A stretch of DNA of 64,000 nucleotides from the NCBI RefSeq assembly GCF_002950945.1, contig NZ_CP012673.1, positions 310,001 through 374,000 of the forward strand. The letters are read 5' to 3'. Positions 10,240-60,610 of the stretch are shown piece after piece (the stretch's first letter is position 1; every line of letters begins with the position of its first letter). This DNA is from Sorangium cellulosum (GTDB lineage Bacteria; Myxococcota_A; Polyangia; Polyangiales; Polyangiaceae). The translations under genes were made by a program, and so were the position numbers. The notes below the pieces were generated by a model. The model was not told the origin of the DNA and made no database searches. It worked only from the letters and a program-made list of their open reading frames with translations.

Positions 10240-10274
10240 GTCGCTCACCGCGGCGCTGCTGTCGAGGAATGCCG

Positions 10275-12350: not shown

Positions 12351-12581
12351 ATGACTCAGCCCCAGCCCAACAATCCTCTTCACGGCGTCACGCTCCAGAT
12401 GATCCTCGAGCACCTGGTCGCGCAGCACGGCTGGGAGCAGCTCGGGCGCATGATCGACATTCGCTGCTTCAAGTACGATCCCAGCATCAAATCGAGCCTG
12501 CAATTCCTGCGACGGACCCCGTGGGCCCGGCAGCAGGTGGAGGCGCTTTACCTGCGGGACAAAGCCAAGCCCGGCCCGTGA
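12351..12581 (+). CDS. VF530 family DNA-binding protein (DUF2132)
   Basis: 76 residues, nearly all one domain: [40 protein letters not shown] and [11 protein letters not shown] are the family's hallmark segments. VF530 proteins are small, double-stranded-DNA-binding, SAP-like helical proteins of unknown physiological role. The frame is open further upstream, but that part is low-complexity; ATG 12351 starts just before the domain. It stands alone. Confidence 0.85.
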
Positions 12582-12809
12582 CCGGCCCGCTCGACACGAA
12601 GACTCCGCAGCGCAGGTAACAACGTTCATCCGCCCGGCGAGGCAGATCGCGTGCTGCTCGAAGGTGACGAGGTCGTAGCTCACCATGCCGCGCCTGCACC
12701 CCTTCGGGCCCTCGGATCCGGAGGCCTCGGGGGCGGGCGCCCCCGGGCGAACCGCGCAGCGGGCGAGCACGCACCTCTGCGAGCGCGCCCCGGTGCAAGC
12801 GCGGGCGCG

Positions 12810-13649: not shown

Positions 13650-14109
13650 GGAGAACGAGTACTTGATCCGCGGCCGGACCGGTAGATGGTCGACCGAATG
13701 CCGCGCGATCGTCGTTTCAGCGGGCGCGTCGCCGGAGGCGGCCGCCGCGCGGCGCCGTCATGGCCGGACGTCGTGGGCGCCCCGGGCGGCCGCGTGGGCG
13801 CCCCGGGTGCCCGCGCCGCGTGCGTTCGCCGGCTGCCGCAGCGCCGGCGGTCCCCTTGCCGACGGCGGCCAGCGAACGGGCGGTCCGCTCGATCCGCGCA
13901 TCGGCTCGAGCAGGCACGTCACCGCGGCGCCACGACGAGCAGCCGGCCGTCCTTCGCGTCCTGAGGGTGCGACGTATCAGCGAGGTGGGCGGCAGCCGAC
14001 GTGGCACGGCCGGCGCGGCGCCCTCCGCACGGATCGCGACGTGTAAGAAATGTTCAGCCGTCGGCGAAGACCGCAGTGGGGAATGCCCCAATCTCCTGCC
14101 GAGGACGTC
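13650..14109. other. Divergent intergenic region, no gene seen
   Basis: 460 bp between two divergent lipoprotein genes. Long frames exist but are Arg/Pro/Ala-rich. A GAGGA at 14101-14105 serves the downstream start at 14110. No repeats or RNA genes were noticed. Confidence 0.45.
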
Positions 14110-15315
14110 ATGAAGAACGATGGATGCGCTCTCCAATCCAGGATCTGGCAGCTCGCTGCAGCAGCAGTGAGCGCACTGTCTCTCGTCGCCTGTGGTGGGA
14201 CGGACGAGAGCACAGCCGAGCCAGCGCTCGACGAAGTGGGCGTGGCCTACCAGGGGCTGAGCTCCCATTCGGGCTGGGCCCACACGGACCACGCGAATCC
14301 CTATACGAACCGCTGCGTGAACGACGCCGCCAGCAGCATCAACGCGCTCTACGACCCGAGCTATGTCATGGCCTACCGCAGCGGCAGCGACGCCTGCAGC
14401 GCGTATGCGCCCACGACGGGCGCCGGGCTCATCCACCACCAGGGCATCCAACGGCTCGCGCGTGACTACAACTATCTCCTGGTGACGACCTCGGTTCAAG
14501 GGGGCGCACGCCCGGGCTTCGAGGTCGTGCGCCTCGGGTCGCTGAGCAACAACCCGTGGCTGCTGGGTCGGAATGCTTCTCCCTCCCGGCTCCCGTCCTG
14601 CAGCGACGCGATCGTGCACTACCAGTCCGACGACTCAGGGATGCCGTACGATCACTCGGGCGGTCTCCAGGTGAACGGCGAGTACGTCATCGTGCCTTTC
14701 GAGAAGAACGACGACCAGGCGACGGCGGGCTTTCGCATCGCCAGGCTGTCGAATCCCCTGAACCCCCAGTGGAGCCCGCTGGTCTTGCGAACGCGAGGTC
14801 AGACGGTCAACGCGGGAGCGGTGAGCCTCACGCTGCTCTCCTCTGGCCGCTACCTCGCGTTCGTCTTTGGCCACAACTCGGACGACGTCGAGGTGTTCGT
14901 GTCCTCGGAGGCGGCGATGCCCTATTTCGGCAGCTCGACCTCCACCTGGGTATCTCAGGTGAGCGTCTCAACGCCCTTCGGCGGTGCGGAATACCAGGGC
15001 CTGCAGCTCGTGACCCAGTGCGACGGGCAGCTCTTCGTGGCCGGCACGCACAGGAACAAATGGTTCGACGAGGACTGGGTCGACCTGTGGCGTGTGGACC
15101 TCAGCGCGGCCTTCGTGCCTAGCTTCACCGAGGTGGCCAGCCGACACATGTCCTGCAGCAGCTCGGCTACGGGCAACAAGCGCTACTGCGCCTTCGATGC
15201 AGGGGCCGGGATCTATGTGGATCCCGACGGCGAGATCCTGCTCTATGGGGTGGAGCACTACAACGACGCCTACCCGGGCACGACACGCGCGGTCAAGGTG
15301 CGCGAGTTTCCGTAG
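14110..15315 (+). CDS. Secreted lipoprotein, beta-propeller-like
   Basis: 401 residues with a lipoprotein signal (AAAAVSALSLVACGG). The mature protein has regularly spaced strands with short polar turns (GGLQVNGEYVIVPFEK, GFRIARLSNPLNPQW, GRYLAFVFGHNSDDVEVFV, YVDPDGEILLYGVEHYND), suggesting a propeller-like fold. I recognise no catalytic motif. An ATG 60 bp upstream (14050) is open but precedes the signal peptide; the RBS GAGGA supports 14110. No operon partner is clear. Confidence 0.65.
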   Translation: MKNDGCALQSRIWQLAAAAVSALSLVACGGTDESTAEPALDEVGVAYQGLSSHSGWAHTDHANPYTNRCVNDAASSINALYDPSYVMAYRSGSDACSAYAPTTGAGLIHHQGIQRLARDYNYLLVTTSVQGGARPGFEVVRLGSLSNNPWLLGRNASPSRLPSCSDAIVHYQSDDSGMPYDHSGGLQVNGEYVIVPFEKNDDQATAGFRIARLSNPLNPQWSPLVLRTRGQTVNAGAVSLTLLSSGRYLAFVFGHNSDDVEVFVSSEAAMPYFGSSTSTWVSQVSVSTPFGGAEYQGLQLVTQCDGQLFVAGTHRNKWFDEDWVDLWRVDLSAAFVPSFTEVASRHMSCSSSATGNKRYCAFDAGAGIYVDPDGEILLYGVEHYNDAYPGTTRAVKVREFP

Positions 15316-47827: not shown

Positions 47828-48463
47828 CTACTCGTGGACGGCGGCGTAGCGGCCGCTTGGGGTGACGATGACGTGGGCCTTGAACGGAACGTGCAGCTCC
47901 GCGGCGAGGTGGCGCAGCTCCAGGGTCATCGCTTCGTCCTCGGGGGTCGGCGTCGGGTCGCCGCTCGGGTGGTTATGGGCCAGCACGAAGCTGTGGGCGG
48001 CCATGTCCAGCGCCGTGCGCAGGACGGTGGCGCGGCCGACGTAGAGGGCGTCGTCGGAACCGCGGGCGAGCAGGCGCGTCTCGCGGACGCGGCCGTGGGT
48101 GTCGAGCGCGGCGATCCAGAGCTCCTCGTGGACCAGGGAGGCGAGCCTCGGGCCGAAGTACCGCGCCACGCGGGCGGCGTCGTTGAGGAGCGCGCCCCGG
48201 CGTGCGCGGGCGGCGTGGTAGCGGCGGCCGAGTTCGAAGGCGGCGGCGAGCCGGGTCGCGTCGAACAGCGCGATCTGGGTGCGCTCGGCGAGGGCGGCGG
48301 GCGAGAGGCGACCGAGCGAGGGGAGAGCGGCCGTGCCGAGGAGGCGCGGGCCGACGCCGGGCAGGCCGAGCACCATCTCGAGGAGGGCGGCCTCGGTCGC
48401 GGTCGGGAGATCGGGCAGCGTCTCGGCGGGGGCGTCGACGGGGGCGCGGCTCATCGGGCTCAT
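47828..48463 (-). CDS. RadC family protein (JAB/MPN domain)
   Basis: 211 residues. N-terminal helix-hairpin-helix-like part (MVLGLPGVGPRLLG) and C-terminal MPN/JAB domain with the metal motif LAHNHPSGDPTPTPED and an upstream Glu (HEELWIAALD). The name RadC is historical; recent work links these proteins to mobile elements rather than to recombination repair. The frame continues upstream without a stop through an IS66 remnant and a sigma-factor piece up to 49174, but MSPMSRAPVD at 48463 is the natural start. Confidence 0.8.
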   Translation of the reverse strand: MSPMSRAPVDAPAETLPDLPTATEAALLEMVLGLPGVGPRLLGTAALPSLGRLSPAALAERTQIALFDATRLAAAFELGRRYHAARARRGALLNDAARVARYFGPRLASLVHEELWIAALDTHGRVRETRLLARGSDDALYVGRATVLRTALDMAAHSFVLAHNHPSGDPTPTPEDEAMTLELRHLAAELHVPFKAHVIVTPSGRYAAVHE

Positions 48464-48476
48464 CGGGGCCACCGCC

Positions 48477-48790
48477 AGCTTCTTTCCCACGATTACGTAG
48501 CCAGTGCGGTCCCAGAACAAGATCCGGACCTGGTCGCCTCGCCGATTCCTGAACACGAACAGATGCCCGCAGAGCGGGTCGGCTCCGAAGCTGTGCGCGA
48601 CCAGCACCGACAACCCATCGAAGCTCTTGCGCAGGTCGGTAGGCTCGGCCGCGACGTAGACGCGCACCGACGGCGGCAGCGTCAGCACGGCGTCTCCTCG
48701 GCGGCCAGCGCCAGCACACGCTCGAGCGTGGCCGGGTCGAAGCCCGGCCGAACGCGGACCACCCGACCGTTGGGCAGCGCGCAGCTCCTC
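48477..48790 (-). mobile_element. IS66-family remnant (tnpA 3' end + tnpB 5' end)
   Basis: Reverse strand, in order: LPNGRVVRVRPGFDPATLER, VLALAAEETPC then stop, the C-terminus of an IS66 TnpA-like protein. Overlapping its stop, a GTG at 48688 starts VLTLPPSVRVYVAAEPTDLR, KSFDGLSVLV, FVFRNRRGDQVRILFWDRTG, the N-terminus of IS66 TnpB. TnpB breaks off after GYVIVGKKL where the RadC leader begins. The remaining TnpB and the IS66 transposase (TnpC) are absent. Confidence 0.75.
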
Positions 48791-49174
48791 GGCGCACTCG
48801 GGGCACAGGTCGAGGTGCTGCGCGGCCTCGACCAGCACCGCCGGCACCGGGGCGCCCTCCGCGACCAGCTCGGCGTACTGCGGCGTGAGCTGATCCAGCG
48901 ACACGTCCTTCCAGCGGGCCTTCCGCACCTCCGTGAGCGCCACGCGGATGGAGATGGTGATCGCCCAGGTGGTGAATCGGCTGGCGCCCCGGAAGGAATC
49001 GAGCGCGCCGAGCACCTTCAGCGTGGCGTCCTGAGTCAGGTCGTCGATCAGGGCGTCCCCCACGCCGCTGCGTCCGGCGAGCGCCCGCTGCAGGCCTCCC
49101 CGCACGACGCGTCGCAGCTCGGCGACAGCGGCGCTCGCCTGCGCTCCGGGCTCGTGAGGAGGAGACCGGCTCAT
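48780..49174 (-). pseudogene. Truncated ECF sigma factor fused to anti-sigma tail
   Basis: Starts normally (MSRSPPHEPGAQAS) and carries sigma region 2 (DALIDDLTQDATLKVLGALD, FRGASRFTTWAITISIRVAL). After SLDQLTPQYAELVAEGAP it jumps to AQHLDLCPECAEELRA, the Cys-pair end of a short anti-sigma protein. Region 4 is missing, so it cannot be a functional sigma factor. The IS66 remnant begins immediately after, suggesting that insertion and deletion destroyed a sigma/anti-sigma pair. Confidence 0.6.
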
Positions 49175-49562: not shown

Positions 49563-49757
49563 ATGCAGATCGAGAGCGTGCAGTCGAACGAGCCGAACAA
49601 GGTCGAGCAGAACCCGTTCCTGTTCGAGCGGGTCACCGTCGCCAAGGCCCCGGACGAGGAGGAGATGCTCGCGATGCAGCCGGGCTGGTGTGCTTGCGCG
49701 GGCCGCTGCAATTGCTTCTGTGGCAATTGCGCCGCGTGCTCCATCTCCCCCAACTGA
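49563..49757 (+). CDS. Cys-rich RiPP precursor peptide
   Basis: 64 residues. The leader-like N-terminus (1-40) is acidic and Cys-free (MQIESVQSNEPNKVEQNPFL, FERVTVAKAPDEEEMLAMQP). The core-like C-terminus is GWCACAGRCNCFCGNCAACS plus ISPN, with seven Cys at 43, 45, 49, 51, 53, 56 and 59 in CxC, CxCxC and CxxC spacing. A leader without Cys followed by a dense Cys core, directly upstream of an MNIO (DUF692) gene and its partner, is the arrangement of MNIO substrates. The RBS GGAGAAG fits ATG 49563. The C-terminal Asn and absence of a double-Gly site leave the leader cleavage site open; the Pro-Gly at 40-41 is one candidate. Confidence 0.85.
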   Translation: MQIESVQSNEPNKVEQNPFLFERVTVAKAPDEEEMLAMQPGWCACAGRCNCFCGNCAACSISPN

Positions 49758-49774
49758 GAGCCTAGGTGCACGTC

Positions 49775-50644
49775 ATGCGACGCGATCCTCTTGCTCACCT
49801 CCGCTCGCTGCCATACCTCGGCGTCGGCCTCGGCTATCGCAAGGAGCTGGACGCCAGCATCCGGGCCAACCGATCGTCGATCGACTGTCTGGAGATCATC
49901 TCCGAGCACTACTTCGACGCGACCCCGGACCGGATCGCGCGCCTGACGTCGCTCGCCGAGGAGTTTCCGCTCATCCCCCACGGTATCGAGATGTCCATCG
50001 GTACCGTGGGGGAGGTGGATCCGGCCTACCTGAGCTCCCTCGCCCACGTCACCTCGATCGCGCGGGGCGCCTGGGCGAGCGATCACCTCTCGTTCACCCG
50101 CGCCGGCGGCATCGCCCTCGGGCAGCTCACGCCCCTGGTCCGCGATTGCGCCATGGCCATCGACATCGCGCGAAAGGCGCAGGCCGTGCAGGACCGGCTC
50201 GGCGTCCCCTTCCTGCTGGAGAACGTCTCGTATTACGTGAACTTCACCTCGGAGCTCACCGAGGCGGAGTTCATCGCCGAGATCATGTCGCGCTGCACCT
50301 GCGGCATGCTCCTCGACCTCACCAACCTCTTCTTGAACTCGAGGAACCACGGCTACGACCCCCTCCAGTTCCTCGAGACGATCCCGCTCGACCGCGTCGT
50401 CCAGATCCACCTCGCCGGCGGCGACTCCAAGGAGCACCAGATGGGCGACGTCCTGCTCGATCTCCACGGCGCCGCGGTCTACGAGGAGTCGTTCAAGCTC
50501 CTCGATTACGTGGCCCCGCGGGCCGCGAACCTCCGCTCGGTCATCATCGAGCGGGACCAGAACTTCCCCGAGGACTTCGGCGAGATCCTCGCCGACCTCG
50601 ATCGGGCGCGGCAGATCGTGTCGCAGGTGCGGAGGGCCGCATGA
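49775..50644 (+). CDS. MNIO (DUF692) family iron-dependent peptide-modifying oxidase
   Basis: 289 residues, a TIM-barrel enzyme of the family that includes MbnB (methanobactin), TglH and ChrH, which oxidatively remodel Cys in peptides using clustered iron and O2. Family landmarks are in order: YLGVGLGYRKEL, LEIISEHYF (E43, H45), PHGIEMSIG (H69), ASDHLSF (D103, H104), LLENVSYYV (E149), LLDLTNLFLNS (D181, N184), VQIHLAGG (H212), LDLHG (H231), VIIERDQNFP (E259, D261). These include the His/Asp/Glu metal ligands, all apparently intact. ATG 49775 is 17 nt after the precursor stop; a GTG at 49766 is an alternative. It overlaps the partner gene by 4 bp. Confidence 0.9.
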   Translation: MRRDPLAHLRSLPYLGVGLGYRKELDASIRANRSSIDCLEIISEHYFDATPDRIARLTSLAEEFPLIPHGIEMSIGTVGEVDPAYLSSLAHVTSIARGAWASDHLSFTRAGGIALGQLTPLVRDCAMAIDIARKAQAVQDRLGVPFLLENVSYYVNFTSELTEAEFIAEIMSRCTCGMLLDLTNLFLNSRNHGYDPLQFLETIPLDRVVQIHLAGGDSKEHQMGDVLLDLHGAAVYEESFKLLDYVAPRAANLRSVIIERDQNFPEDFGEILADLDRARQIVSQVRRAA

Positions 50645-51450
50645 GCAGCAGCGGACTCCAGGCGGCGTTCGCCCACGTGCTCGTCGATCGCAAGCTCCGC
50701 GATCGGCTGAGCGAGCAGGGCGAGGCGCTGCGGGCCAGGTTCGATCTCACGGGCGAGGAGCTAGAGAAGCTCCTCGAGCTCAGCCCCTCGCGGCTCGGGG
50801 TGACGGCGACGACGGTGGGCGCCAAGCGGGTGGACTTCCTCGTGCGCGCGCTCCCCCGGACGAGCACGATCTTCGGCGGAAGCTGTCAGTGCCAGCTGAT
50901 GGGCTTCGTCGAGGCCTCGATGCCGTTCGAGCCCTCGGACGGCAACCAGGTCAACCGGCTCGTCGCCGAGGGCCAGCGGTTCATCGAGTACCTCGAGACC
51001 CGGCCGGCGGGCGCGCCCACGTACGCGGTGGATCTGGCGAACTACGAGCTCCTGCACCTGAAGCTCAACTACGCTTCGGACGCCGTCCGCCCCCCGGAGG
51101 GAGAGGTGGTGATCGCCGGCGACGCCCCGCTCCAGCTCGGCCGTCACGTGGCGCTCGGGGAGTTCGGCCACGACGTGGTCTCGCTGATCGAGGCCCCGGA
51201 GCTGCCGAAGGCCGCCGCCCCGGCCCACGCGTTCGTCGCGCTCGTGAAATCAGCCCCGCGGAAGATCGTGCCGTACCGCATCGGTCCGGCGGTGTTCCGC
51301 ATGCTGGAGTCCTGGAGGGCTCCAGCGACCTTGAGCGAAGTGCGCGCGGCCCTGTCCGCGCAGCTCGGGCCGAGCGTCGAGCCCGGCGTCGACGCCGCCG
51401 CCCGCTTCGCCCTCCAGGAAGGCATTCTCGTCACCGTGGCCAAGGATTGA
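50641..51450 (+). CDS. MNIO partner protein (precursor-recognition type)
   Basis: 269 residues with no catalytic motif. The N-terminal helical part (about 1-78: LQAAFAHVLVDRKLRDRLSE, LEKLLELSPSRLG) resembles the short helical domain of MNIO partner proteins. A central alpha/beta part (105-185) leads to a C-terminal winged-helix-like part (RKIVPYRIGPAVFRMLESWR, APATLSEVRAAL, LQEGILVTV), similar in feel to PqqD/RRE domains that hold leader peptides. In MbnBC and TglHI systems the partner is needed for substrate binding. The 4-bp overlap with the oxidase supports a complex. A CQCQ segment lies at 82-85. Confidence 0.75.
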   Translation: MSSSGLQAAFAHVLVDRKLRDRLSEQGEALRARFDLTGEELEKLLELSPSRLGVTATTVGAKRVDFLVRALPRTSTIFGGSCQCQLMGFVEASMPFEPSDGNQVNRLVAEGQRFIEYLETRPAGAPTYAVDLANYELLHLKLNYASDAVRPPEGEVVIAGDAPLQLGRHVALGEFGHDVVSLIEAPELPKAAAPAHAFVALVKSAPRKIVPYRIGPAVFRMLESWRAPATLSEVRAALSAQLGPSVEPGVDAAARFALQEGILVTVAKD

Positions 51451-51461
51451 GAGGTTCGAAC

Positions 51462-53420
51462 ATGCGCATCTGTTGCATCATGAAGTATCCCCCCATCCAG
51501 GGTGGAGTCAGCGCTCGTTGCTACTGGATCGCGCGGGGCCTCGCCAAGCGGGGGCACCAGGTCACGGTCGTGACGAACGCCACCGAGGTCGAGGACGATT
51601 ACCGCATCTGGACCTCGCCCGAGGACATCGCCCGCCTGGAGGCCGAGTTCGACAACGGCGGTCGGGTGCGGGTCGTCACCACGGGGCATTTCCGGCAGAG
51701 CTCCTGGTACATCCCCTACGCCAACCCGTACCTCACCAAGCTCGCCGCGCTCGGCACCGAGGAGATCCGGCGCATCGACGCCGAGGTGGTGTTCTCCTCG
51801 TACTTCGAGCCCTACGGGATGAGCGCCCACCTGGCCGCCTCCTGGACCGGCATCCCGCACGTGGTGCAGCACGCCGGCAGCGATCGCACCCGGCTCATGG
51901 ATCACCCCGAGCTCTCCCTCGCCTACCGGGAGATGCTGCGCCGCGCCTCCCTGGTGGTGACCGGCGATCTCGATCTCAGCGGCCTCGGCATCCCGCTGGA
52001 TCGCTTCGCCCGCATCCGCCACGGCCACCTCCCCGACGAGTTCAGCCCGGAGGGTCCGAAGCTCGACATCGACGCGCTGGTCCGCCGCGCCGCCGAGCCG
52101 GGCGCGCCCGGGGTCAACAACACGCGCCCCATCGACCGCGACGCGGTGACCATCGGCCTCTATGGCAAGCTCGGCGAGGTCAAGGGCTCGTACGATCTCA
52201 TCGCCGCCCTCGCCCGCCTGCGCAAGCAGGGCAAGCGCTTCAACCTGGTCACGCTCTCCAACGGCCGGGAGAAGACCAAGTTCCTCGCCGCCATCCGCGA
52301 GGCCGGGATCGACGACTGCACCTGGGTGCTGCCGTTCATCCCGCACTGGCGCGTCCCCGAGTTCATCCGCGCCTGCACCGCGGTGTGCTTCCTGGAGCGC
52401 AAGTTCCCGGTGGAGATCCACACGCCCAGCCTCCCGCGCGAGGTCATGGCCTGCGGCACCTGCCTGATCCTCTCCGGGGAGATCGCCAACAAGCCTTATT
52501 GCTCGCCGGGGCTGCGCGACGGCGAGAACGTGCTCGTGGTCCAGGATCCGTCGAACATCGACCAGCTCGCGGCGACGCTCGACCAGGTGATCACCGATCC
52601 GGAGCGGGCCCGCGCCATCGGCATGGCCGGGATCGGCGTCTACTCCCACAAGCCGATCGACGATCTCGGCGAGACCTACGAGGAGCTGTTCGCCCGCGCG
52701 ATCAAGAACGGCGCCTCGCCGGCGAAGATGGACCTCGGCGTCGCCAAGCACACCTGGGAGGAGGAGATCCTCTCGATGCTGCGCCGCTTCATGCCGGTGT
52801 CGTTCCGCGGCCTCGAGGCGAGAATCCGCGCCTCGCTGCGCGGCTTCCTGGAGAGCTTCGACCTCTCCGGCGCCAGCATGGAGTCGGCGGCGCTGGCCTT
52901 CGCCGACGAGCTCCTCGCCCGCGACGAGTGGCCGAGCGAGCTCGCCCCCGCCGCGGTGACGCGCGAGGTCTTCCGCTTCGAGCGCGAGCAGCTCTGGCTG
53001 GTGGTCGACGTGGAGACCAAGCGCGGCGAGGCGCCCTTCCCCGAGCACCGCCGCCCCCACGCCGAGGCGGGCGTGACCAAGGACGGCCGCCGCGTCCTCG
53101 GAGCCCTCAAGCCGGTCCGCAGCGCCTGGGTGCACGTCGAGCAGTTCGCCGTCGACGTCGAGGCGGCGATCGCCACCCTGGTCACCGGCCAGAAGATCAC
53201 GTCGATGCCCACCCTGGCCGAGCCCGCGCTCTACGTCTTCCAGAAGCGCGGCAGCCTCAAGGGCCGTGTCTTCCGCATCAACCGCGAGGCCCGGGATTTC
53301 CTCGCCGGCTGCGACGAGAAGAGGACGGTGGCCGAGCTCGTGGGCGCGGGCATAAGCCGCGATCACCTCTACGACTTCGTCCGCCAGCTCGCCAAGGAGC
53401 AGGTGATCGCCCTCCGCTAG
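51462..53420 (+). CDS. GT4 glycosyltransferase fused to a partner-like C-terminal region
   Basis: 652 residues. The GT-B glycosyltransferase (about 1-420) has YPPIQGGVSARCYWIARGLA, the acceptor-domain start of GT4 enzymes, IGLYGKLGEVKGSYDLIAAL at the second Rossmann domain, and a nucleotide-sugar region with FLERKFPVEIHTPSLPREVM. Residues about 440-652 are an extra region ending in ALYVFQKRGSLKGRVFRINR, EARDFLAGCDEKRTVAELVG. In order and pattern this parallels residues 105-240 of the MNIO partner, so the transferase may dock on the same peptide. It probably adds a sugar to the modified peptide. A GAGAGG RBS precedes ATG 51462; the gap to the partner is 11 bp. Confidence 0.8.
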   Translation: MRICCIMKYPPIQGGVSARCYWIARGLAKRGHQVTVVTNATEVEDDYRIWTSPEDIARLEAEFDNGGRVRVVTTGHFRQSSWYIPYANPYLTKLAALGTEEIRRIDAEVVFSSYFEPYGMSAHLAASWTGIPHVVQHAGSDRTRLMDHPELSLAYREMLRRASLVVTGDLDLSGLGIPLDRFARIRHGHLPDEFSPEGPKLDIDALVRRAAEPGAPGVNNTRPIDRDAVTIGLYGKLGEVKGSYDLIAALARLRKQGKRFNLVTLSNGREKTKFLAAIREAGIDDCTWVLPFIPHWRVPEFIRACTAVCFLERKFPVEIHTPSLPREVMACGTCLILSGEIANKPYCSPGLRDGENVLVVQDPSNIDQLAATLDQVITDPERARAIGMAGIGVYSHKPIDDLGETYEELFARAIKNGASPAKMDLGVAKHTWEEEILSMLRRFMPVSFRGLEARIRASLRGFLESFDLSGASMESAALAFADELLARDEWPSELAPAAVTREVFRFEREQLWLVVDVETKRGEAPFPEHRRPHAEAGVTKDGRRVLGALKPVRSAWVHVEQFAVDVEAAIATLVTGQKITSMPTLAEPALYVFQKRGSLKGRVFRINREARDFLAGCDEKRTVAELVGAGISRDHLYDFVRQLAKEQVIALR

Positions 53421-53448
53421 ATCGACGCATCGACCAAGGAGCTCGACC

Positions 53449-55182
53449 GTGTGTGGAATCGTCGCGGTGGTCGGCCAGCGGGCCGAAGACAAGGTCCTCT
53501 CGGCCATGCTGGACGCCGTGGAGGCGCGCGGCCCGGACGGTCGAGAGAGCGTATCGGGTGACTGGTTCTCCGTCGGGTTCTGCCGGCTGGCGATCTATGC
53601 CCTGGAGGCAGGTCGCCAGCCGGTACGGAGCCCCGACGGGGCCGTGACCCTCGCCTTCAACGGCGAGATCTACAATTTCGAGGCCCTGGCGGAGCGGCTC
53701 GGGATCCGGGCCGCCTCCGAGGCCGAGCTGCTGCTCCAGGGCTACCTGGCCCACGGCTCGAGCTTCGTGTCTCAGCTCGACGGCGACTTCGCCGTGGTGA
53801 TCGTCGACGAGAAGCGCCGCGTCTGCGAGCTGTGGCGCGATCGCTTCGGGGTGAAGCCGCTCTATTATACCATGCTCCCCGGCCGCCGCCTCCTGATCTC
53901 CTCCGAGATCCGCGGCCTCCTCGCCCACCCCGACTTCGTGCTGGGCTGGGACGAGCTGGCGCTGGCGGAGCGCTACGTGCTGACCTTCTGGTCCACCGAG
54001 CGGACCACGTTCAAGGGCGTGCGCCAGATCCTCCCGGGGCACCGGACCGTGATTGGCCCTTTCGATGGCTCCGGTGCAGAGGGCGGCGCGCTGCACGTGG
54101 AAGAGATCCCCTATACCCCGGAGCGGCAGATCTCGGTCGTCGGAGAGTGCGAGGTCGTCAAGGCGTGCACCGACACCCTGCAGGCTTCGATCGCCAAGCG
54201 GGTCCAGCACACGCAGGTGTCGCCGGTGGTCGTCGCGCTCTCCGGGGGCATCGATTCCAGCCTGCTCGCCGCGCTGGCGCGCCGCGCCTCGAGCGAGCTC
54301 GCCGCCATCACCATCTGCGGCGGGCCCGATGAGCTCGATGCGCGCCATTCGACCCTGCTCGCCTCGAAGCTCGGCATCGAGCACCACCTCTACACGGTGA
54401 GCACCGAGCGGCTGCTCGAGGTCATCCCCGCGGTGGTGCTGGCCCAGCCGGCCAACGGCGCCTTCCTCGCCTGGTTCCTCGCCGAGGCGATGCAGCGCCT
54501 CACTCCGAGCGCCAAGGTCCTGCTCTGCGGCGAGGGCGCCGACGAGATGTTCCATGGCTATCGCGTCCACAGCGATCCCGCCGGCTTCAAGGCGCAGACG
54601 CTGGACGCGCTCTCCGCGGTGAGTGATCTCGAGGGCGGCTCCGCGCTGCTCCGCCGGGTGCGGGGCTGGGAGCAGATGGAGCCCGCCGCCTACTACGAGG
54701 ACGTCACGGCCCTGTTCCTGAGCGCCCAGCTGGTGAACCGCCACCTGGTGCCGTTCGATCACGGCACCATGGCGCGGAGGGTGGAGTGCCGCGTCCCCTT
54801 CCTCGGCCTGGAGATGCTCGACCTTCACGACCGCACCCCGCGCCGCGCCCTCGGCCCCAACAAGCCTCTCCTCCGGCGAGCTCTCAACCAGCTCCCCGAG
54901 CTCGACGCCTCGACCCGCGACGCGCTCCTCACCCGGCAGCGGACCGCCGGCTACACGGCGACCGAGGCGGCGCGCGCCGGCCTGCGCAGGCTGCTGATGG
55001 ACCGCGGGCTGACCCGCTCGCGGCTGATGGCCTCGAAAATCATGCGCTTCTCCCGCAACCCCGAGGAGCTGTTCTGGCTGGGCGCCGCGCACGTCGTCTA
55101 TTTCGAGCGCCGCGGCAAGATCGACGGGATGGATTTCGAGACCTTGCTAGAGGAAGCCTTCAACGCCTCTCCCGAGTGGTAG
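53449..55182 (+). CDS. Asparagine synthetase (glutamine-hydrolysing)-like amidotransferase
   Basis: 577 residues, GTG start, encoding MCGIVAVVGQ with the catalytic Cys2 of class-II glutamine amidotransferases. The glutaminase domain (1-190) has FNGEIYNF and DRFGVKPLYYT. The synthetase domain (from about 240) has the ATP-pyrophosphatase loop VVALSGGIDSSLLAAL and LLCGEGADEMFHGY, so both halves look active. In RiPP clusters such enzymes amidate carboxylates or, in lasso systems, close rings. No McjB-type peptidase is present, so lasso formation is unlikely; amidation of the peptide or of a sugar is more plausible. RBS AAGGAG is 8 bp upstream. It follows the GT gene by 28 bp. Confidence 0.85.
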   Translation: MCGIVAVVGQRAEDKVLSAMLDAVEARGPDGRESVSGDWFSVGFCRLAIYALEAGRQPVRSPDGAVTLAFNGEIYNFEALAERLGIRAASEAELLLQGYLAHGSSFVSQLDGDFAVVIVDEKRRVCELWRDRFGVKPLYYTMLPGRRLLISSEIRGLLAHPDFVLGWDELALAERYVLTFWSTERTTFKGVRQILPGHRTVIGPFDGSGAEGGALHVEEIPYTPERQISVVGECEVVKACTDTLQASIAKRVQHTQVSPVVVALSGGIDSSLLAALARRASSELAAITICGGPDELDARHSTLLASKLGIEHHLYTVSTERLLEVIPAVVLAQPANGAFLAWFLAEAMQRLTPSAKVLLCGEGADEMFHGYRVHSDPAGFKAQTLDALSAVSDLEGGSALLRRVRGWEQMEPAAYYEDVTALFLSAQLVNRHLVPFDHGTMARRVECRVPFLGLEMLDLHDRTPRRALGPNKPLLRRALNQLPELDASTRDALLTRQRTAGYTATEAARAGLRRLLMDRGLTRSRLMASKIMRFSRNPEELFWLGAAHVVYFERRGKIDGMDFETLLEEAFNASPEW

Positions 55183-55188
55183 GGCCCC

Positions 55189-56229
55189 GTGAAGCTCGAC
55201 GACCTCTGCGCCACCTTCCAGTCCCTCGCATTTCCACGCCTCGGCGAGCGCGCGCACCCGGAGCGCCAGGCGGTGCTCGACGCCCGCGCCCAGGTCTTCA
55301 CCGCCGTGGCCGACGACGAGTTCCTGGCCGATTGCATCGATCGGGAGCTGCGCCTGATCGAGGAGGGTCGGCTTCGACGCGGGCTCTCGCCCTTCTTCAC
55401 CCTGCCGGAGCTGGGGATCCACTTCACCTTCGGCTACTGGTCCCCCGGGATGACGCCGGGCCCGCACGAGCACACCGCCTGGACCATCACCGCGGTCTGC
55501 CGCAACTGGCTCGAGGTCCTGACCTACAACCGCGAGGAGTCCTACCGGCGCCGCGGGCTGGTGCCCAAGAATCGCTTCGAGGCGCCCGCGGGAAAGGTCG
55601 GCTACATCTACGATCCTTGCATCCACGAGCCCAGGAACACCTCGGACGAGTGGTCCCTCTCCCTGCACATCGTCAGCCCGCGCGACGGCGAGCGCCCGGC
55701 CGATCAGCCGGAGCCGCTGCCCGTCCTCCAGTCCGCCTCCGGCGTGCCCGTCGCCGGCGACGCGCACCCGTTCACGAGCGTCCTGATCGCACGGCAGCGC
55801 GAGCGTTATCTGCGCCTGCTCACCCGCATCCTGCTGAAGATGCATGTGGCCGCGGCCCCTGCCCTCCTCGCCCGGTGCTTCGGGCTCGCCTCCTCGGCGA
55901 CGCGAAGGCTGATCCAGCGGTCCGCGAGGGTGCCTGTCGAAGGAGTGCAGCCTGACTCGACGTGGCGCCTCGCGCGCACGCACCGGGACCTGGTCCTCAC
56001 CCACCGTCACCGGGACAACCACGTCGCCCTCGACGTAGAGACGCCGAACGGCCCGCGGCAGGCGTTCGTCTCCGGCGCCTCGGCGCGCGAGGCCGTCGGG
56101 CTCATCACCCGTGAAGTGATCATCGACGTGGACGTGCTGCCCGGGAGCTTGACCGCCGAGGAGCGCGCCGCGATCGGCGAGGCGCTGGAGCAGACCGGCC
56201 TCTTCACCCGGGTTCGCGGCGAGGGGTGA
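55189..56229 (+). CDS. Cysteine-dioxygenase-like cupin protein with C-terminal extension
   Basis: 346 residues, GTG start 6 bp after the amidotransferase. The cupin core (about 75-170) shows MTPGPHEHTAWTITAVCRNW (H93, H95) and SDEWSLSLHIVSPRDG (H160), the three-His iron site of the cysteine dioxygenase family; the GPHEH and SLHI.SP segments are close to bacterial CDO. The C-terminal 130 residues (HRDLVLTHRHRDNHVALDVE, SAREAVGLI) are not in ordinary CDO, which is about 200 residues, and look like an added binding domain. It may oxidise a Cys thiol of the peptide to sulfinate or catalyse a related thiol oxidation. It may instead act on free Cys. Confidence 0.7.
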   Translation: MKLDDLCATFQSLAFPRLGERAHPERQAVLDARAQVFTAVADDEFLADCIDRELRLIEEGRLRRGLSPFFTLPELGIHFTFGYWSPGMTPGPHEHTAWTITAVCRNWLEVLTYNREESYRRRGLVPKNRFEAPAGKVGYIYDPCIHEPRNTSDEWSLSLHIVSPRDGERPADQPEPLPVLQSASGVPVAGDAHPFTSVLIARQRERYLRLLTRILLKMHVAAAPALLARCFGLASSATRRLIQRSARVPVEGVQPDSTWRLARTHRDLVLTHRHRDNHVALDVETPNGPRQAFVSGASAREAVGLITREVIIDVDVLPGSLTAEERAAIGEALEQTGLFTRVRGEG

Positions 56230-56233
56230 TCCC

Positions 56234-58009
56234 ATGTTCTCACGCCTCCGAGAGAGCTTCGCGCACACGCCGCGCACGCTGAGGCTGGTGTGGCGCTCCT
56301 CGCCGCGCGGGAGCGTCGCCCTCGGCCTGCTCACCGTCGCCGCCGCGCTGCTCCCGCTCGCCGTCGCCTACGCGGGCAAGCGGATCATGGACGCGGTGGT
56401 CGAGGGCTCGGCCGCGGCGACGCTGCGCTGGGTGCTCTTCGAGCTCGCCGCCATCGGCGCGCAGGCGCTGGCGCAGCGCGGGCTGGGTCTCGTGCGCTCG
56501 CTGCTCGGGGCGAGGCTCGGGCTCGACATCAACGGGATGATCCTCGAGAAGGCGCTCTCGCTGGAGCTGCGCCATTTCGAGGATCCGGAGTTCTACGATC
56601 AGCTGAGCCGCGCCCGCGGCGAGGCCGCGACCCGCCCGCTCTCGGTGGTGAGCGAGACCTTTCAGCTCCTTCAGAACGCCATCACCCTGGCCGGCTACGT
56701 GGTGCTGCTCTTCCACTGGAGCAGCCTGGCCGTGCTGCTCCTCTTGCTCGCGGCCGTCCCCGCCACCGTCGCCGAGGTGCGCTACTCCAGCGCGGCCTTC
56801 CGGATGCGCAACGTCCGCTCTCCCGAAGGCCGCCTGCTCAAGTATCTCGAGCACGTCCTCGCCAACGACGGCCACGCCAAGGAGGTGAAGGCGTTCGGGA
56901 TCGGTAGGGCCCTGCTCGAGCGCTTCCGCTCCCTCGGCGAGAGCTTCTACGAGGAGGACAAGAAGCTCTCCGTGCGCCGCGCCGGCTGGGGTTATGCCCT
57001 CTCGCTGCTCGGCACCAGCGCCTTCTATGGCTGTTATGCGGTGATGGCCCTCGCCGCCGCCGCCAGGCGGCTCTCGCTCGGCGAGCTGGTGCTCTACGTG
57101 GTGGCCTTCCGGCAAGGGCAGCAGGCGTTTCAGGCGATCCTCACCGCCCTCGGCGGCATGTACGAGGACAACCTCTACATGTCGAACCTCTTCAAGTACC
57201 TGGACATCCCCGTCGAGGCCCCGGCGCTGCTCTCGGCCATGCCCGGGTCGGACAAGGAAGGGATCGTCTTCGAGGACGTGGGCTTCCGCTATCCGGGCGC
57301 CGAGAAATGGGCGCTCCGGCACGTCAACCTCCACATCAAGAGCAACGAGAGCCTGGCGCTGGTCGGCCACAACGGCGCTGGCAAGACCACGTTCATCAAG
57401 CTGCTGAGCCGGCTCTACGAGCCCACCGAGGGGCGAATCCTGCTCGACGGTCGCGATCTCCGCTCCTGGGAGCCGGAGGCCTTGCGCCGCCGGATCGGCG
57501 TCGTGTTCCAGGACTTCAACCAATATCAGCTCAAGATGCGGGACAACGTCGGCCTCGGCAGCGTCGAGCACCTGAGGGACGAGGCCCGGATGCTGCGCGC
57601 GGTGGAGCGCGGCGGCGCGGGCGAGCTGCTCGCGGGCCTACCCAGGGGGCTGGAGACGCAGCTCGGGCGCGCGTTCAGGGACGGCACCCAGCTCTCCGGC
57701 GGTCAGTGGCAGAAGATCGCGCTGGCGCGGGCGTTCATGCGCGAGGAGGCGGACATCCTGGTGCTCGACGAGCCCACGGCGGCGCTCGACGCCGAGGCCG
57801 AGCATGTGGTGTTCGAGCGCTTCCGGGCGCTTTCGCGGGATCGGACCTCCATCCTGATCTCGCATCGCTTCCCCACGGTGCGGATGGCCGATCGGATCGT
57901 GGTGATCGAGGGCGGCAGCCTGCTGGAGGAGGGCACACACGACATGCTGGTCGCGCGCGGCGGGCGTTACGCCGAGCTGTTCGCGCTCCAGGCGAAGGGT
58001 TATCTCTAG
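56234..58009 (+). CDS. ABC transporter, fused permease/ATPase exporter
   Basis: 591 residues, a type-I exporter half-transporter that probably works as a homodimer in the inner membrane. Six transmembrane helices occupy about 25-320. The nucleotide-binding domain (340-580) has Walker A VGHNGAGKTTF, Q-loop VVFQDFNQYQ, signature QLSGGQWQKIALARAF, Walker B ILVLDEPTAALD and H-switch SHRFPTVR. There is no N-terminal C39 peptidase domain, so leader removal must be done by another protease. It lies 4 bp after the cupin with GAGGGGTG as RBS. The most likely cargo is the mature peptide. Confidence 0.9.
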   Translation: MFSRLRESFAHTPRTLRLVWRSSPRGSVALGLLTVAAALLPLAVAYAGKRIMDAVVEGSAAATLRWVLFELAAIGAQALAQRGLGLVRSLLGARLGLDINGMILEKALSLELRHFEDPEFYDQLSRARGEAATRPLSVVSETFQLLQNAITLAGYVVLLFHWSSLAVLLLLLAAVPATVAEVRYSSAAFRMRNVRSPEGRLLKYLEHVLANDGHAKEVKAFGIGRALLERFRSLGESFYEEDKKLSVRRAGWGYALSLLGTSAFYGCYAVMALAAAARRLSLGELVLYVVAFRQGQQAFQAILTALGGMYEDNLYMSNLFKYLDIPVEAPALLSAMPGSDKEGIVFEDVGFRYPGAEKWALRHVNLHIKSNESLALVGHNGAGKTTFIKLLSRLYEPTEGRILLDGRDLRSWEPEALRRRIGVVFQDFNQYQLKMRDNVGLGSVEHLRDEARMLRAVERGGAGELLAGLPRGLETQLGRAFRDGTQLSGGQWQKIALARAFMREEADILVLDEPTAALDAEAEHVVFERFRALSRDRTSILISHRFPTVRMADRIVVIEGGSLLEEGTHDMLVARGGRYAELFALQAKGYL

Positions 58010-58122
58010 ATCATTTCCCGCCGCGGCGCGCGCCGCGCCCGCTCCAGCCGCAGCCCAGCAAAATTTCAACGATGCGTCATCTGTCCCCGCGCGGTGCGTC
58101 ATCGCGTACAATCGATCTCGCG

Positions 58123-59103
58123 ATGAAATTCCCTAGCTTGTTCCGGTGGCTCGGGTTGCTATTGGGCGCCGCAGCCGCTTGCGGCGCGTGCTCGGATCAG
58201 CAAGTGGCGTCCAGGACCGGCGGGGCGGGCGGCAGCCAGCCCGACGGGTCCGATGGAGCGAGCAGCACGGGTGGGGCGGCCGCCCAACCCGACGCGGGCG
58301 GCGCGGGCGGCCAGGCCGAGACCACCTGGCCGACCGGTTGCGCAGAGCGGCCGGCGTCCATCAGGACCCAGGGCACCATCGTCGAGCTCGCGTTCGAGCT
58401 CATCCTCGACGGCAAGCCGTTCCTGTTCGGCGAGCCGAACGTCGCGCCGGACGGCAGCACGGTCACGCCGCTCAACGTTCGCTTCTACGTCTCGCACGCG
58501 GCGCTGATCGGGGCGGACGGCGATCTCGTGTCCGTCGATATCGTCGGCCCGGACGGTTCCCCCACCCCTTACGGGGTCCACTTCTACAACGCCGAGGACC
58601 CCGGCTCGGCCACGCTCCGGCTGCGCGCTCCGGCTGGCAGCTATGAAGGCGTCAGCTTCGTCTGGGGCTTGCACCAGGCCTGCAACGTCTCCCGGCCGGA
58701 AACGAGCGTCGCGCCTCTGTCGGAAGCCTCCCAGATGACGTGGCCGCACACCGGCTACCTCTTCCTGCGCTACGAGGGCACGGTGGCTCCGCCGGCCGAG
58801 GGGGGTTCCGTCGATCCGGATGGAGAGACGGCCACGGTTCCGCCGGCGGTCCACATGGGAGGCAACCTCGTCATGGATCTCGCCCCCAGCGTCGAGGTGC
58901 GAGGCGTCCTGTCCGTGCCCGCGAGCGGCTCGACGGGCAAGGTCGTCCGGGTCGTCATGGACGAGGTCTTCGGGGGCGCCACGGCGGACGTCGACCTGAC
59001 CGGGTTCGTCCCGCCGCCCGGGCCCGTGGGAGACGAGCTCCTCGCGGGGGAGCGCCTGCGGCGCGGCCTCCCCGACCTGACCGTGTTCGCGTTCGGTCCG
59101 TGA
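58123..59103 (+). CDS. mbnP-like: MbnP-like copper-associated lipoprotein
   Basis: 326 residues with a signal peptide (RWLGLLLGAAAACGACSD) and an Ala/Gly/Asp linker to about 70. The mature domain matches MbnP ('metallo-mystery pair') proteins: IVELAFELILDGKPFLFGEP, LNVRFYVSHAALIGADGD, GVSFVWGLHQACN and QMTWPHTGYLFLRYEG. In characterised MbnP, a Trp is converted to kynurenine by its partner MbnH and the protein binds copper; W207 in MTWPHTGY (or W181) is a candidate for that change. It overlaps the MbnH-like gene by 4 bp (GTGA). An upstream ATG (58072) is possible but precedes the signal. The gap to the ABC gene is 113 bp. Confidence 0.8.
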   Translation: MKFPSLFRWLGLLLGAAAACGACSDQQVASRTGGAGGSQPDGSDGASSTGGAAAQPDAGGAGGQAETTWPTGCAERPASIRTQGTIVELAFELILDGKPFLFGEPNVAPDGSTVTPLNVRFYVSHAALIGADGDLVSVDIVGPDGSPTPYGVHFYNAEDPGSATLRLRAPAGSYEGVSFVWGLHQACNVSRPETSVAPLSEASQMTWPHTGYLFLRYEGTVAPPAEGGSVDPDGETATVPPAVHMGGNLVMDLAPSVEVRGVLSVPASGSTGKVVRVVMDEVFGGATADVDLTGFVPPPGPVGDELLAGERLRRGLPDLTVFAFGP

Positions 59104-60146
59104 CGCCGAGCTTCAACCGTGGAGGGGCCATCGGCCTGGCGGCGCTGCTCCTTGCGGGCGGATGCGGCGACGACGGGCCGGCGGCCCCTGGACGTTTGCC
59201 GCCGCTCGTCACGGACGCCATCCCCGCCGGGTTTCCAGCGCGCACCGCGGCGGCCAGAGCGCCGGCCGAGAGCGCGCTCACCGAGGCGAGGGCCCAGCTC
59301 GGCAAGAGGCTCTTCTTCGACAAGCGCCTCTCTCGCACCGGCGAGGTAGCGTGCGCGAACTGCCACCGCCAGGAGCACGCCTTCGCCGACCCGGCCCCCG
59401 TCTCCCGGGGAGTCGACGGCCGCCTGGGACAGCGGAACGCGCCCGCGCTGGTGAACCTGGCCTGGGGCGAGAGCTTCTTCTGGGATGGCCGCGCGGCCAC
59501 CCTGGAAGAGCTGGTGGGGAAGCCCATCGAGCACCCCGACGAGATGGATCTACCGCTCGCCGAGGCCGTCGCTCGTGTTGCCGGCGACGGCGTCTACCTG
59601 AAGGCGTTCGCGGATGCCTATGGCGAGCCTCCCGGCGAGGAGTCCTTGCGCCAGGCCATTGCCAGCTTCATCCGCTCGATCGTCAGCGCCGACAGCCCTT
59701 ACGACCGGCACAAGCGCGGGGACGACACGAGCTTCGGAGACGCCGAGCGCCGCGGCGAGGCGCTGTTCCTGACCGAGCGGGCTGGCTGCTTCCATTGCCA
59801 CCCGTCCGGAATGCTCACCAACGAAGGCTTCTTCAACAACGGCACCTACCTCGACGGCGGCGACGTCGGGCGGCAAAGGATCACCGGACGAACGGGAGAC
59901 CTTGGCAAATTCAAGGTGCCCGGTTTGCGGAGCATTGCGGCGAGCGCCCCCTATATGCACGACGGATCGCTGGCGACGCTGGAGGAGGTGGTCGACCATT
60001 ACGATCGCGGCGGGCTGGGTCATTTCTCCACCGATCCGCAGATCGAAAAGCTGGGGCTCTCTCCGGACGAGAAGGCCGATCTGGTGGCGTTCCTGCGGTC
60101 GCTGACCGATCCCGCCTTCCTCGGCGATCCGCGGTACCGCCCCTGA
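59100..60146 (+). CDS. mbnH-like: MbnH-like di-haem cytochrome c peroxidase family protein
   Basis: 348 residues, GTG start, signal peptide with a Cys-ending stretch (GLAALLLAGGCGDD). Two c-type haem motifs: CANCH (85-89) in EVACANCHRQEHAFADP and CFHCH (230-234) in RAGCFHCHPSGMLTNEGF. Between them are RNAPALVNLAWGESFFWDGR and the CcpA/MauG-type landmarks; late PYMHDGSLATLEEVVDHYDR holds a conserved Met-His region. MbnH belongs to the bacterial di-haem peroxidase/MauG family and oxidises Trp of MbnP. Coupled translation with the MbnP-like gene supports a working pair outside the cytoplasm. Confidence 0.85.
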   Translation: MTPSFNRGGAIGLAALLLAGGCGDDGPAAPGRLPPLVTDAIPAGFPARTAAARAPAESALTEARAQLGKRLFFDKRLSRTGEVACANCHRQEHAFADPAPVSRGVDGRLGQRNAPALVNLAWGESFFWDGRAATLEELVGKPIEHPDEMDLPLAEAVARVAGDGVYLKAFADAYGEPPGEESLRQAIASFIRSIVSADSPYDRHKRGDDTSFGDAERRGEALFLTERAGCFHCHPSGMLTNEGFFNNGTYLDGGDVGRQRITGRTGDLGKFKVPGLRSIAASAPYMHDGSLATLEEVVDHYDRGGLGHFSTDPQIEKLGLSPDEKADLVAFLRSLTDPAFLGDPRYRP

Positions 60147-60240
60147 ACGCCTCGCACCAAGTAGCGCCTGCAGGAGGCCTCGCCGAGCCTTCGAGCCGAT
60201 TCCTGCGCAAGCGCGCGGCCTCGCTGGTATCAGGGCCGTC

Positions 60241-60610
60241 ATGACGACGATGCGCGCCAAGCGAGCGGTCTCGGCCACTCGTAGAGCCCCCAGCGCGGCC
60301 GCTCCAGCGGTCGCTGCTCCGCGTGCGGCGCCGGAGCGAGCCCATGTGCTCGACGTCCCGTTCGCGATGCGCGCGGTCGCGTCCGCGAGCGGCGCGCGCT
60401 GGGAAGCGGCGCATGGCGTGTTCGTGGTTCGCGCAGATGCGCTCCCGCCGGCGCTCGCGCCGTTCCGCGCCGCGCCGTACTCGTGGAGCGACGCGTCGAG
60501 CACGAGCTCAACGACGACCCCGCGCCCGCGCCGGCCGCCCCTGCGGGGGCGATCGTCCTCCGCCCGCACCAGCTGGACGGCGTGCGGGCCATCGCAGGCA
60601 TGCCCGATTG
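60241..60610 (+). pseudogene. DUF5710 / SNF2-type helicase N-terminal remnant
   Basis: ATG 60241 begins a frame with HVLDVPFAMRAVASASGARW and EAAHGVFVVRA, a DUF5710 domain. Near 60487 the protein continues in another frame as VERRVEHELNDDPAPAPAAP and IVLRPHQLDGVRAIAGM, the helicase entry segment, and then ends. The frameshift plus the missing helicase domain mark a pseudogene. Confidence 0.6.

What the first reader, a model, noticed from the sequence alone, without database searches (positions are those of the whole stretch)
49563..60146. Candidate undescribed MNIO RiPP cluster with copper-linked MbnP/MbnH pair
Seen: a tight co-directional row of a seven-Cys precursor, DUF692/MNIO oxidase, partner, GT4 glycosyltransferase with extra C-terminus, asparagine-synthetase-like enzyme, CDO-like cupin and ABC exporter, then MbnP-like and MbnH-like genes. 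Spacings are -4 to 28 bp within the first seven genes. Known: MNIOs (MbnB, TglH, ChrH) remodel peptide Cys with iron and O2; MbnP/MbnH accompany methanobactin genes and bind or handle copper. Inferred: the locus makes a glycosylated, thiol-modified, Cys-rich peptide tied to copper handling. I know of no described family that joins MNIO + GT4 + AsnB-like + CDO-like + MbnPH.
Basis: partly seen in the sequence, partly recalled or inferred. Interest (0 to 1): 0.95.

Follow-up and report, generated by a model that had tools for sequence, protein, structure and literature searches.

The report
Undescribed glycosylating MNIO peptide cluster
Seven adjacent genes encode a small cysteine-rich peptide, an iron oxidase of a kind predicted to remodel its cysteines, and a sugar-transfer enzyme carrying a domain related to the oxidase's own partner protein; the same gene trio occurs in bacteria from several phyla and likely makes a family of sugar-bearing peptides that our literature searches did not find described, whereas the neighbouring copper-type genes look like a separate unit.

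Summary
At 49563-58009: Cys-rich precursor, MNIO, partner, GT4 with a C-terminal extension, AsnB-like enzyme, thiol-dioxygenase-like cupin, ABC exporter. The extension is homologous to the stand-alone MNIO partner (profile comparison 99.7-99.9% probability; controls 1% or less), so the glycosyltransferase very likely docks on the same precursor. A search keyed only on the GT found 18 loci; an MNIO lies within 2 kb of it in 17 of 18, the exception being a 4.7-kb contig cut inside the partner gene. Cys-rich small ORFs lie within 4.5 kb of the MNIO in 15 of those 17. The AsnB-like gene is in 5 of 18, the cupin and MbnP/MbnH in none. MbnP/MbnH look like a separate unit: the 2.1-kb block is 89-93% conserved in three of five other genomes of the genus, with no MNIO-cluster gene in the 12-20 kb fetched around it. 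So: an apparently undescribed glycosyl-MNIO RiPP family across phyla; copper link not supported. What the MNIO and GT do chemically is inferred.

The parts
49563..49757 (+). precursor peptide, 64 aa, leader motif LFERV, core with 7 Cys (spacing C1C3C1C1C2C2C)
   Evidence: homologues upstream of the MNIO in two Nocardia loci
49766..50644 (+). MNIO (DUF692) oxidase; motif residues H72, H107, E152, D184, N187, H215, D232, H234, E262 invariant in 18 of 18 GT-linked MNIOs (window included)
50641..51450 (+). MNIO partner protein (weak HvfC match; RRE-type family)
51462..53420 (+). GT4 glycosyltransferase (residues about 1-417) fused to a partner-like domain (about 425-652)
53449..55182 (+). AsnB-like glutamine-dependent amidotransferase: Cys2, SGGIDS loop and GEGADE motif present
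55189..56229 (+). cysteine/thiol-dioxygenase-like cupin with extra C-terminal region; accessory, detected only here among the GT-MNIO loci
56234..58009 (+). ABC exporter; no peptidase domain among its Pfam matches
58123..59103 (+). MbnP-like lipoprotein; neighbour, not judged part of the cluster
59100..60146 (+). MbnH-like di-haem protein; neighbour, not judged part of the cluster

Best explanation
The seven genes at 49563-58009 form a RiPP-type gene cluster predicted to make a cysteine-rich peptide that the MNIO and its partner would oxidise at cysteine and that the GT4 glycosyltransferase, which carries its own partner-like domain, would likely glycosylate. Proposed working order, with the status of each step: a leader motif 16-25 residues before the first Cys (shown as a sequence pattern) is bound by RRE-type domains of the partner and of the GT (domain homology shown, binding inferred); the MNIO uses Fe and O2 to convert Cys in the C-terminal core to thio-heterocycles such as 5-thiooxazole (inferred from the nearest characterised relatives, BufB/HvfB); the GT4 domain then puts a sugar from a nucleotide-sugar donor on the core, most likely on sulfur of Cys or of the thio-heterocycle, because Cys is the one residue the cores have in common (inferred); in this genome an AsnB-like enzyme would amidate a carboxylate of the peptide or sugar and a thiol-dioxygenase-like cupin would oxidise a remaining thiol (inferred); the ABC protein would export the product (inferred). 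The MbnP/MbnH genes next door most likely belong to a different unit.
For: GT extension homologous to the MNIO partner: hhalign 99.9%, E 4e-36 and 8e-34; still 99.7%, E 2e-26, when L052 (and L051), whose GT tails are partner-like or odd, are left out. Both GT N-terminal halves, the reversed profile and 20 column shuffles give 1.0% or less. PqqD matches 13 of 19 GTs and NGO1945_C 3 of 19 at E up to 0.1, best 4e-7 and 3e-5 (the window's own GT is not among them). NGO1945 is, as I recall, the gonococcal protein solved as 3DEE, which PMC13097082 (part 1 of 6 read) calls an MNIO partner, PME1. In L052 the GT tail matches the partner profile at 3.8e-54 and no separate partner was detected (L052 was not in that profile). 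GT-keyed search: MNIO within 2 kb of the GT in 17 of 18 loci, 18th contig cut. Cys-rich small ORFs in 15 of 17; 19 of 21 peptides picked from them carry one of three related leader patterns against a mean of 1.0 and a maximum of 5 of 21 in 200 shuffles (patterns written after seeing the peptides). MNIO motif residues invariant in 18 of 18. MNIO scores best with BufB, then HvfB.
Against: No product, mass or activity is known. MNIO chemistry cannot be predicted safely: characterised MNIOs also act on Asp, Asn, Phe and homocitrulline (PMC13060819 and PMC13174530, passages read), and the six GT-linked MNIOs scored lie below the BufB and HvfB equivalog cut-offs. No partner-like domain was detected on the GT in L051 and L054, and in L050 it is a separate ORF. 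In L047 only 2 of 13 Cys-rich ORFs carry the leader pattern, so with all of them the figure is 20 of 32. Ser or Thr lies in or next to many cores, so O-glycosylation is open. AsnB in only 5 of 18 and cupin in 0 of 18. No precursor was found in L051 or L054.
Confidence: 0.72

Rival explanations
1. The GT O-glycosylates Ser/Thr (or an MNIO-hydroxylated residue), while the MNIO acts on Cys independently; the AsnB-like and carbamoyl enzymes tailor the sugar (for example a uronamide) rather than the peptide C-terminus.
For: Ser occurs inside 9 and Thr inside 8 of 21 cores and next to the first Cys in several more; L043 and L048 add a second GT4 and a NodU-like carbamoyltransferase (for L043; same clusters c11 and c12 in L048), a set that fits sugar tailoring. 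Precursor C-termini show no common residue.
Against: No Ser or Thr position is shared by the cores; Cys is the one residue in all, though partly by construction because the peptides were recognised by their Cys.
Confidence: 0.4
2. It is a copper-handling captophorin/bufferin or methanobactin-like system, with MbnP/MbnH as its copper periplasmic module.
For: MNIO nearest to BufB (219 bits) and HvfB (186 bits); Cys-rich core; MbnP/MbnH-like genes lie 113 bp downstream.
Against: MbnP/MbnH detected in 0 of 18 other loci and conserved without MNIO-cluster genes nearby in 3 of 5 other genomes of the genus; no Lys-Cys/EGKCG or DUF2282 precursor; partner has no DUF2063 match. A metal-binding product without MbnP/MbnH is still possible.
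Confidence: 0.2
3. GT4, AsnB-like and ABC genes are an envelope-polysaccharide set that merely abuts a small MNIO-precursor-partner operon.
For: Closest GT4 structures are ordinary small-molecule GTs (BshA, MshA); AsnB-like and ABC types also occur in polysaccharide loci (recalled).
Against: Partner-like domain on the GT, MNIO near it in 17 of 18 loci of several phyla, and the L052 partner fusion.
Confidence: 0.05

Closest known systems
Captophorins / bufferins (HvfABC, BufABC, FonABC; thiooxazole MNIO RiPPs)
   Same: Cys-rich precursor, MNIO of the BufB/HvfB side of the family, RRE-type partner protein
   Different: adds a GT4 with its own partner-like domain; precursor without EGKCG, Lys-Cys or DUF2282; partner without a DUF2063 match; MNIO below curated cut-offs
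Nitrilobacillins / nitrilotides (pes cluster, PMC13060819)
   Same: MNIO plus partner plus AsnB-like enzyme in one RiPP cluster
   Different: there Asp hydroxylation and a C-terminal nitrile with a conserved C-terminal R(V/T)DN; here a Cys-rich core ending SISPN and a GT4; AsnB-like gene in only 5 of 18 relatives
Methanobactin
   Same: MNIO acting on Cys peptides; MbnP/MbnH-type neighbours
   Different: MbnB model 48 bits against cut-off 325; MbnP/MbnH not linked in relatives; GT4 present
Glycocins
   Same: glycosylated Cys-containing RiPPs, S-linked sugars known (PMC12457901, abstract start in search listing)
   Different: glycocin enzymes are, as I recall, GT2 (SunS type) without an MNIO; here GT4 with an MNIO

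Membership tests
MNIO (PF05114) RiPP clusters | PF05114 protein with the metal-site motifs | tested here: met
   246 bits, cut-off 25; nine motif residues invariant in 18 of 18 and aligned to 3BWW. Site-3 residues per PMC13419390; assignment of the others to sites 1-2 is recalled
MNIO (PF05114) RiPP clusters | short precursor near the MNIO and an RRE-type partner | tested here: met
Captophorin/bufferin | MNIO above BufB or HvfB equivalog cut-off | tested here: not met
   BufB 218.9 of 310; HvfB 185.9 of 360
Captophorin/bufferin | DUF2063 partner (PME1) | tested here: not met
   no Pfam family for the window partner at E up to 0.1; only a weak HvfC match, 28.8 of 142 bits
Captophorin/bufferin | Lys-Cys/EGKCG repeat or DUF2282 precursor | tested here: not met
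   the 64-aa peptide has no KC or CK pair; no Pfam match
Captophorin/bufferin | 5-thiooxazole product binding copper | not testable with these tools
   needs expression and MS/NMR
Methanobactin | MbnB equivalog | tested here: not met
   48.3 of 325 bits
Methanobactin | MbnP/MbnH co-conserved with the cluster | tested here: not met
   0 of 18 loci, 6 of them with 10 kb on both sides; pair conserved without the cluster in 3 of 5 genomes
Nitrilotides | AS-like enzyme with MNIO and partner | tested here: met
Nitrilotides | precursor C-terminal R(V/T)DN | tested here: not met
   precursor ends SISPN
Nitrilotides | PesX homologue | not tested
   no PesX sequence was compared
Nitrilotides | C-terminal nitrile product | not testable with these tools
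   needs MS
Glycocin | GT2-type S/O-glycosyltransferase | tested here: not met
   19 of 19 GTs match GT4 models; PF00535 is not among the 17 families matched at E up to 0.1; GT2 as the glycocin type is recalled
Lasso peptide | AsnB-like lasso cyclase | tested here: not met
   NF033535 95.9 of 525 bits
Thiol dioxygenase (cupin gene) | CDO fold | tested here: met

The most novel reading that the evidence does not exclude
A new cross-phylum RiPP class in which a partner-domain-bearing GT4 glycosylates the sulfur of MNIO-made thio-heterocycles (or the Cys they come from), giving S-glycosyl thio-heterocycle peptides: the sugar would cap the metal-binding sulfur, so the peptides would be masked metallophores or masked thiol reagents unmasked by a glycosidase, with AsnB-like, carbamoyl, methyl and thiol-dioxygenase enzymes as lineage-specific decorations.
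Probability: 0.33. Interest if true: 0.9.

Novelty: new variant of a known kind. Interest (0 to 1): 0.77.

Why it matters
[quoted passage not shown] A GT4 fused to a partner-type domain gives a ready genomic hook for a whole peptide class in actinomycetes (Nocardia, Streptomyces, Nonomuraea and others), myxobacteria and several uncultured groups, and a directly testable question: does one leader peptide recruit an iron oxidase and a glycosyltransferase through two related docking domains? It may also give a route to S-glycosylated thio-heterocycles.

Tried and rejected
MbnP/MbnH as part of the system: rejected. GT as an unrelated polysaccharide enzyme: rejected. The GT as a single-sequence query of genome contigs found no relative (14 stretches matched, none confirmed); the seven-sequence alignment A1 gave 18 loci (72 stretches, 19 relatives). 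Single-GT searches of whole genomes: 52 of 377 sampled phylum genomes had a match at E 1e-3, but only 2 (G000 and G221) a near full-length one below 1e-100; the other 50 were ordinary GT4 matches, best 3e-12. Family: 2 of 108 (G000 and G442) at E 1e-20. G221 is Plesiocystis pacifica SIR-1 (L042 carries the identical genes on a contig of the same length), so L036 and L042 are one locus, counted once.

MNIO tree (83 rows = 18 GT-linked, 4 paralogues, L065 and every second one of the 120 listed homologues; quick method): it puts the window MNIO in an 11-row group with two Nocardia GT-linked MNIOs (support 94), but 60 homologues have unknown context, the root branch is weak (20) and the GT-linked rows against the 4 paralogues have support 75 only, so monophyly of GT-linked MNIOs is not claimed. 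Cupin as core: rejected; relatives occur in 7 of 108 family genomes including the own one, beside other genes in the five loci looked at. A 4-row cupin alignment was dropped because its fourth row fitted badly (A3); the 3-row A4 was used. The BshA/MshA similarity covers residues 1-417 only and does not fix the sugar donor; the extension was not folded or searched on its own. The partner profile was built from 16 of the stand-alone partners, so for these it is no independent test; most had first been found by phmmer or by clustering. A promoter/terminator scan of 57950-60300 was uninformative. PDB sequence searches with the partner and the cupin found nothing. A prevalence scan of the class with alignment A2 never ran.

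Leader patterns: the 21 peptides were picked by eye from the ORFs; other listed ORFs were dropped as non-coding by eye, and of L047 only 2 of 13 and of L044 2 of 3 listed ORFs went in. With all 13 of L047 the count is 20 of 32. Each of the 16 loci with peptides (window included) has at least one peptide that fits.

Literature: searches. No listed title or abstract start, and no passage read, describes an MNIO cluster with a GT4; lists were cut to the best rows (25 of 2,040, 20 of 78). Read: PMC13060819 abstract, sections 6 and 10, first part of 12, find passages; PMC13097082 part 1 of 6 and a find without hits; PMC13174530 abstract and find passages (12 of 20 places shown); PMC12710340, PMC13419390, PMC12636315, PMC7794033, PMC8776678 find passages; PMC12257519 find without hits. 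The review PMC11806912 is not held. Subscription papers are mostly missing, so absence is not proof.
Full report
What is there. The window is bases 310001-374000 of a 14.56-Mb single-contig genome; no call names it, and its size and kin suggest a Sorangium-like myxobacterium (inference). The first seven are packed (gaps -4 to 28 bp); the MbnP/MbnH-like pair follows after 113 bp.

The GT leads to the family, and the family has an MNIO. A search of one genome per GTDB species with a GT alignment (patterns [LIV][IM]KYPPIQ and VVT[HN]A[DT][ELH]VE; nothing from the MNIO) gave 18 loci: by record titles ten Actinomycetota (Nocardia x3, Asanoa x2, Spongiactinospora, Nonomuraea, Nocardioides, Kitasatospora, Streptomyces), Plesiocystis pacifica, and MAGs labelled Gammaproteobacteria, Anaerolineae, Caldilineaceae, Thermoanaerobaculia, Acidobacteriota, Bacillota and Tectomicrobia. 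Tally: MNIO 17 of 18 (L037 is a 4.7-kb contig cut in the partner gene). Stand-alone partner 17 of 18; in L052 none was detected, and there the GT's own tail matches the partner profile at 3.8e-54, that is, the partner itself seems fused to the GT. Extension on the GT 15 of 18, as a separate ORF in L050, not detected in L051 and L054. AsnB-like 5 of 18 (L042, L043 twice, L045, L046, L048 twice). Cupin, MbnP and MbnH 0 of 18. Only six loci (L038, L039, L040, L045, L047, L053) hold 10 kb on both sides, so absence of accessories is weaker in the other twelve. Database hits agree: GT and MNIO homologues report longest contigs of the same length in a Minicystis MAG (4,019,029), an ENA set (5,164) and a Myxococcales MAG (5,623).

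Precursors. In 15 of the 17 loci with an MNIO there is at least one short ORF with 3-7 Cys within 4.5 kb of it; none was found in L051 or L054. Of 21 peptides picked from these, 19 carry one of three related leader patterns ([FL]E[ILVRFQT]xx[ILMV], [FLY][FL]ExV or EFxIxxL) 16-25 residues before the first Cys; shuffled leaders give a mean of 1.0 and at most 5 of 21. The patterns were written after looking at the peptides, so the shuffle figure is descriptive. L047 has 13 such ORFs, mostly with GG-type leaders, and only 2 of the 13 fit; counting all, 20 of 32 fit. Each of the 16 loci with peptides, the window included, has at least one that fits. Cores are CxxC, CxC and CC arrays, for example CIICLICIICVVC (Caldilineaceae) and CSGCGSCSGCAHSGCSGC (Nonomuraea). 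Ser occurs in 9 and Thr in 8 of 21 cores.

The MNIO. It aligns with 3BWW, 8hci (TglH, as I recall) and MbnB 7dz9. H72, H107, E152, D184, N187, H215, D232, H234 and E262 are invariant in 18 of 18 GT-linked MNIOs, including the N and D-x-H that I equate with N175, D242 and H244, which HvfB needs (PMC13419390, passages read). It scores 219 with BufB and 186 with HvfB, below the cut-offs 310 and 360; five other GT-linked MNIOs score 190-245 with BufB. Cys-to-thiooxazole chemistry is the nearest precedent, not a demonstrated activity.

Accessories here. The AsnB-like protein has the N-terminal Cys, SGGIDS loop and GEGADE motif of glutamine-dependent enzymes and is far from lasso cyclases. An AS-like enzyme in another MNIO cluster turns the peptide C-terminus into an amide and then a nitrile (PMC13060819); whether this one acts on the peptide or on the sugar is open. 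The cupin is CDO-like by predicted fold, from a middling model.

The copper link. The own genome has three MbnP genes. The block 58053-60149 is found at 89.3, 92.8 and 92.9% identity in three of the five other genomes of the genus; no hit to the window's precursor, MNIO, partner, GT, AsnB, cupin or ABC proteins was found in the 12-20 kb fetched around it, and DNA similarity to window 40000-64000 stops at the block on both sides. Two of these genomes have no GT match at E 1e-20, and in the third the match is on another contig. MbnP/MbnH are therefore, on this evidence, neighbours by position. A metal-binding function of the peptide itself is untouched by this.

Verdict. A real RiPP-type cluster of an apparently undescribed, cross-phylum glycosyl-MNIO family (papers searched). 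Shown: gene content, conservation, domain homology, precursor pattern. Inferred: docking, Cys oxidation, glycosylation and its atom, amidation, export.

Noticed in passing
L065 (G442:C1:3118000-3137900), 9083-15206, minus strand: Another genome of the genus has a more distant MNIO with a GT4 lacking the extension, a radical-SAM C-methyltransferase-like gene (TIGR03975, 199 of 282 bits) and an ORF with two repeats of PKPAASAHVCRHDPTP that could be the precursor.
   Followed up: partly
L047:10001-19913: A Thermoanaerobaculia MAG locus with two GT4-extension genes, one MNIO and 13 small Cys-rich ORFs, several with GG-type leaders and near-identical CTGCEGCDRCNGCDG cores, beside an NHLM-type ABC exporter.
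   Followed up: partly
L043:2898-17776 and L048:2693-19849: Elaborated versions: two AsnB-like genes, one next to (L043) or fused with (L048) a methyltransferase, a second GT4, a NodU-like carbamoyltransferase, and two precursors each; the Plesiocystis AsnB ORF also continues into a methyltransferase-like part.
   Followed up: partly
window 47828-49174, minus strand: The ORF directly upstream of the cluster combines sigma-70 region 2, IS66 Orf2 and RadC matches: it looks like an insertion-sequence relic fused in frame, a hint that the left edge was a landing site.
   Followed up: no
G000, L001-L004: Four more MNIOs in the same genome; L001 is above the bufferin cut-off (360 bits, cut-off 310), the other three below.
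   Followed up: no
L077-L081: Relatives of the CDO-like cupin sit beside a ~240-aa protein with a DEAWHQ/DEVWHQ-type stretch in several of these loci, in L078 with ABC genes: a second, separate gene pair of unknown role.
   Followed up: partly
window 51462-53420, residues 311-327 of the GT: E312, H320, P322 and E327 are invariant in the 19 GTs of A2; compared with the GT4 EX7E spacing as I recall it, this looks like a family-specific insertion in the active site.
   Followed up: no
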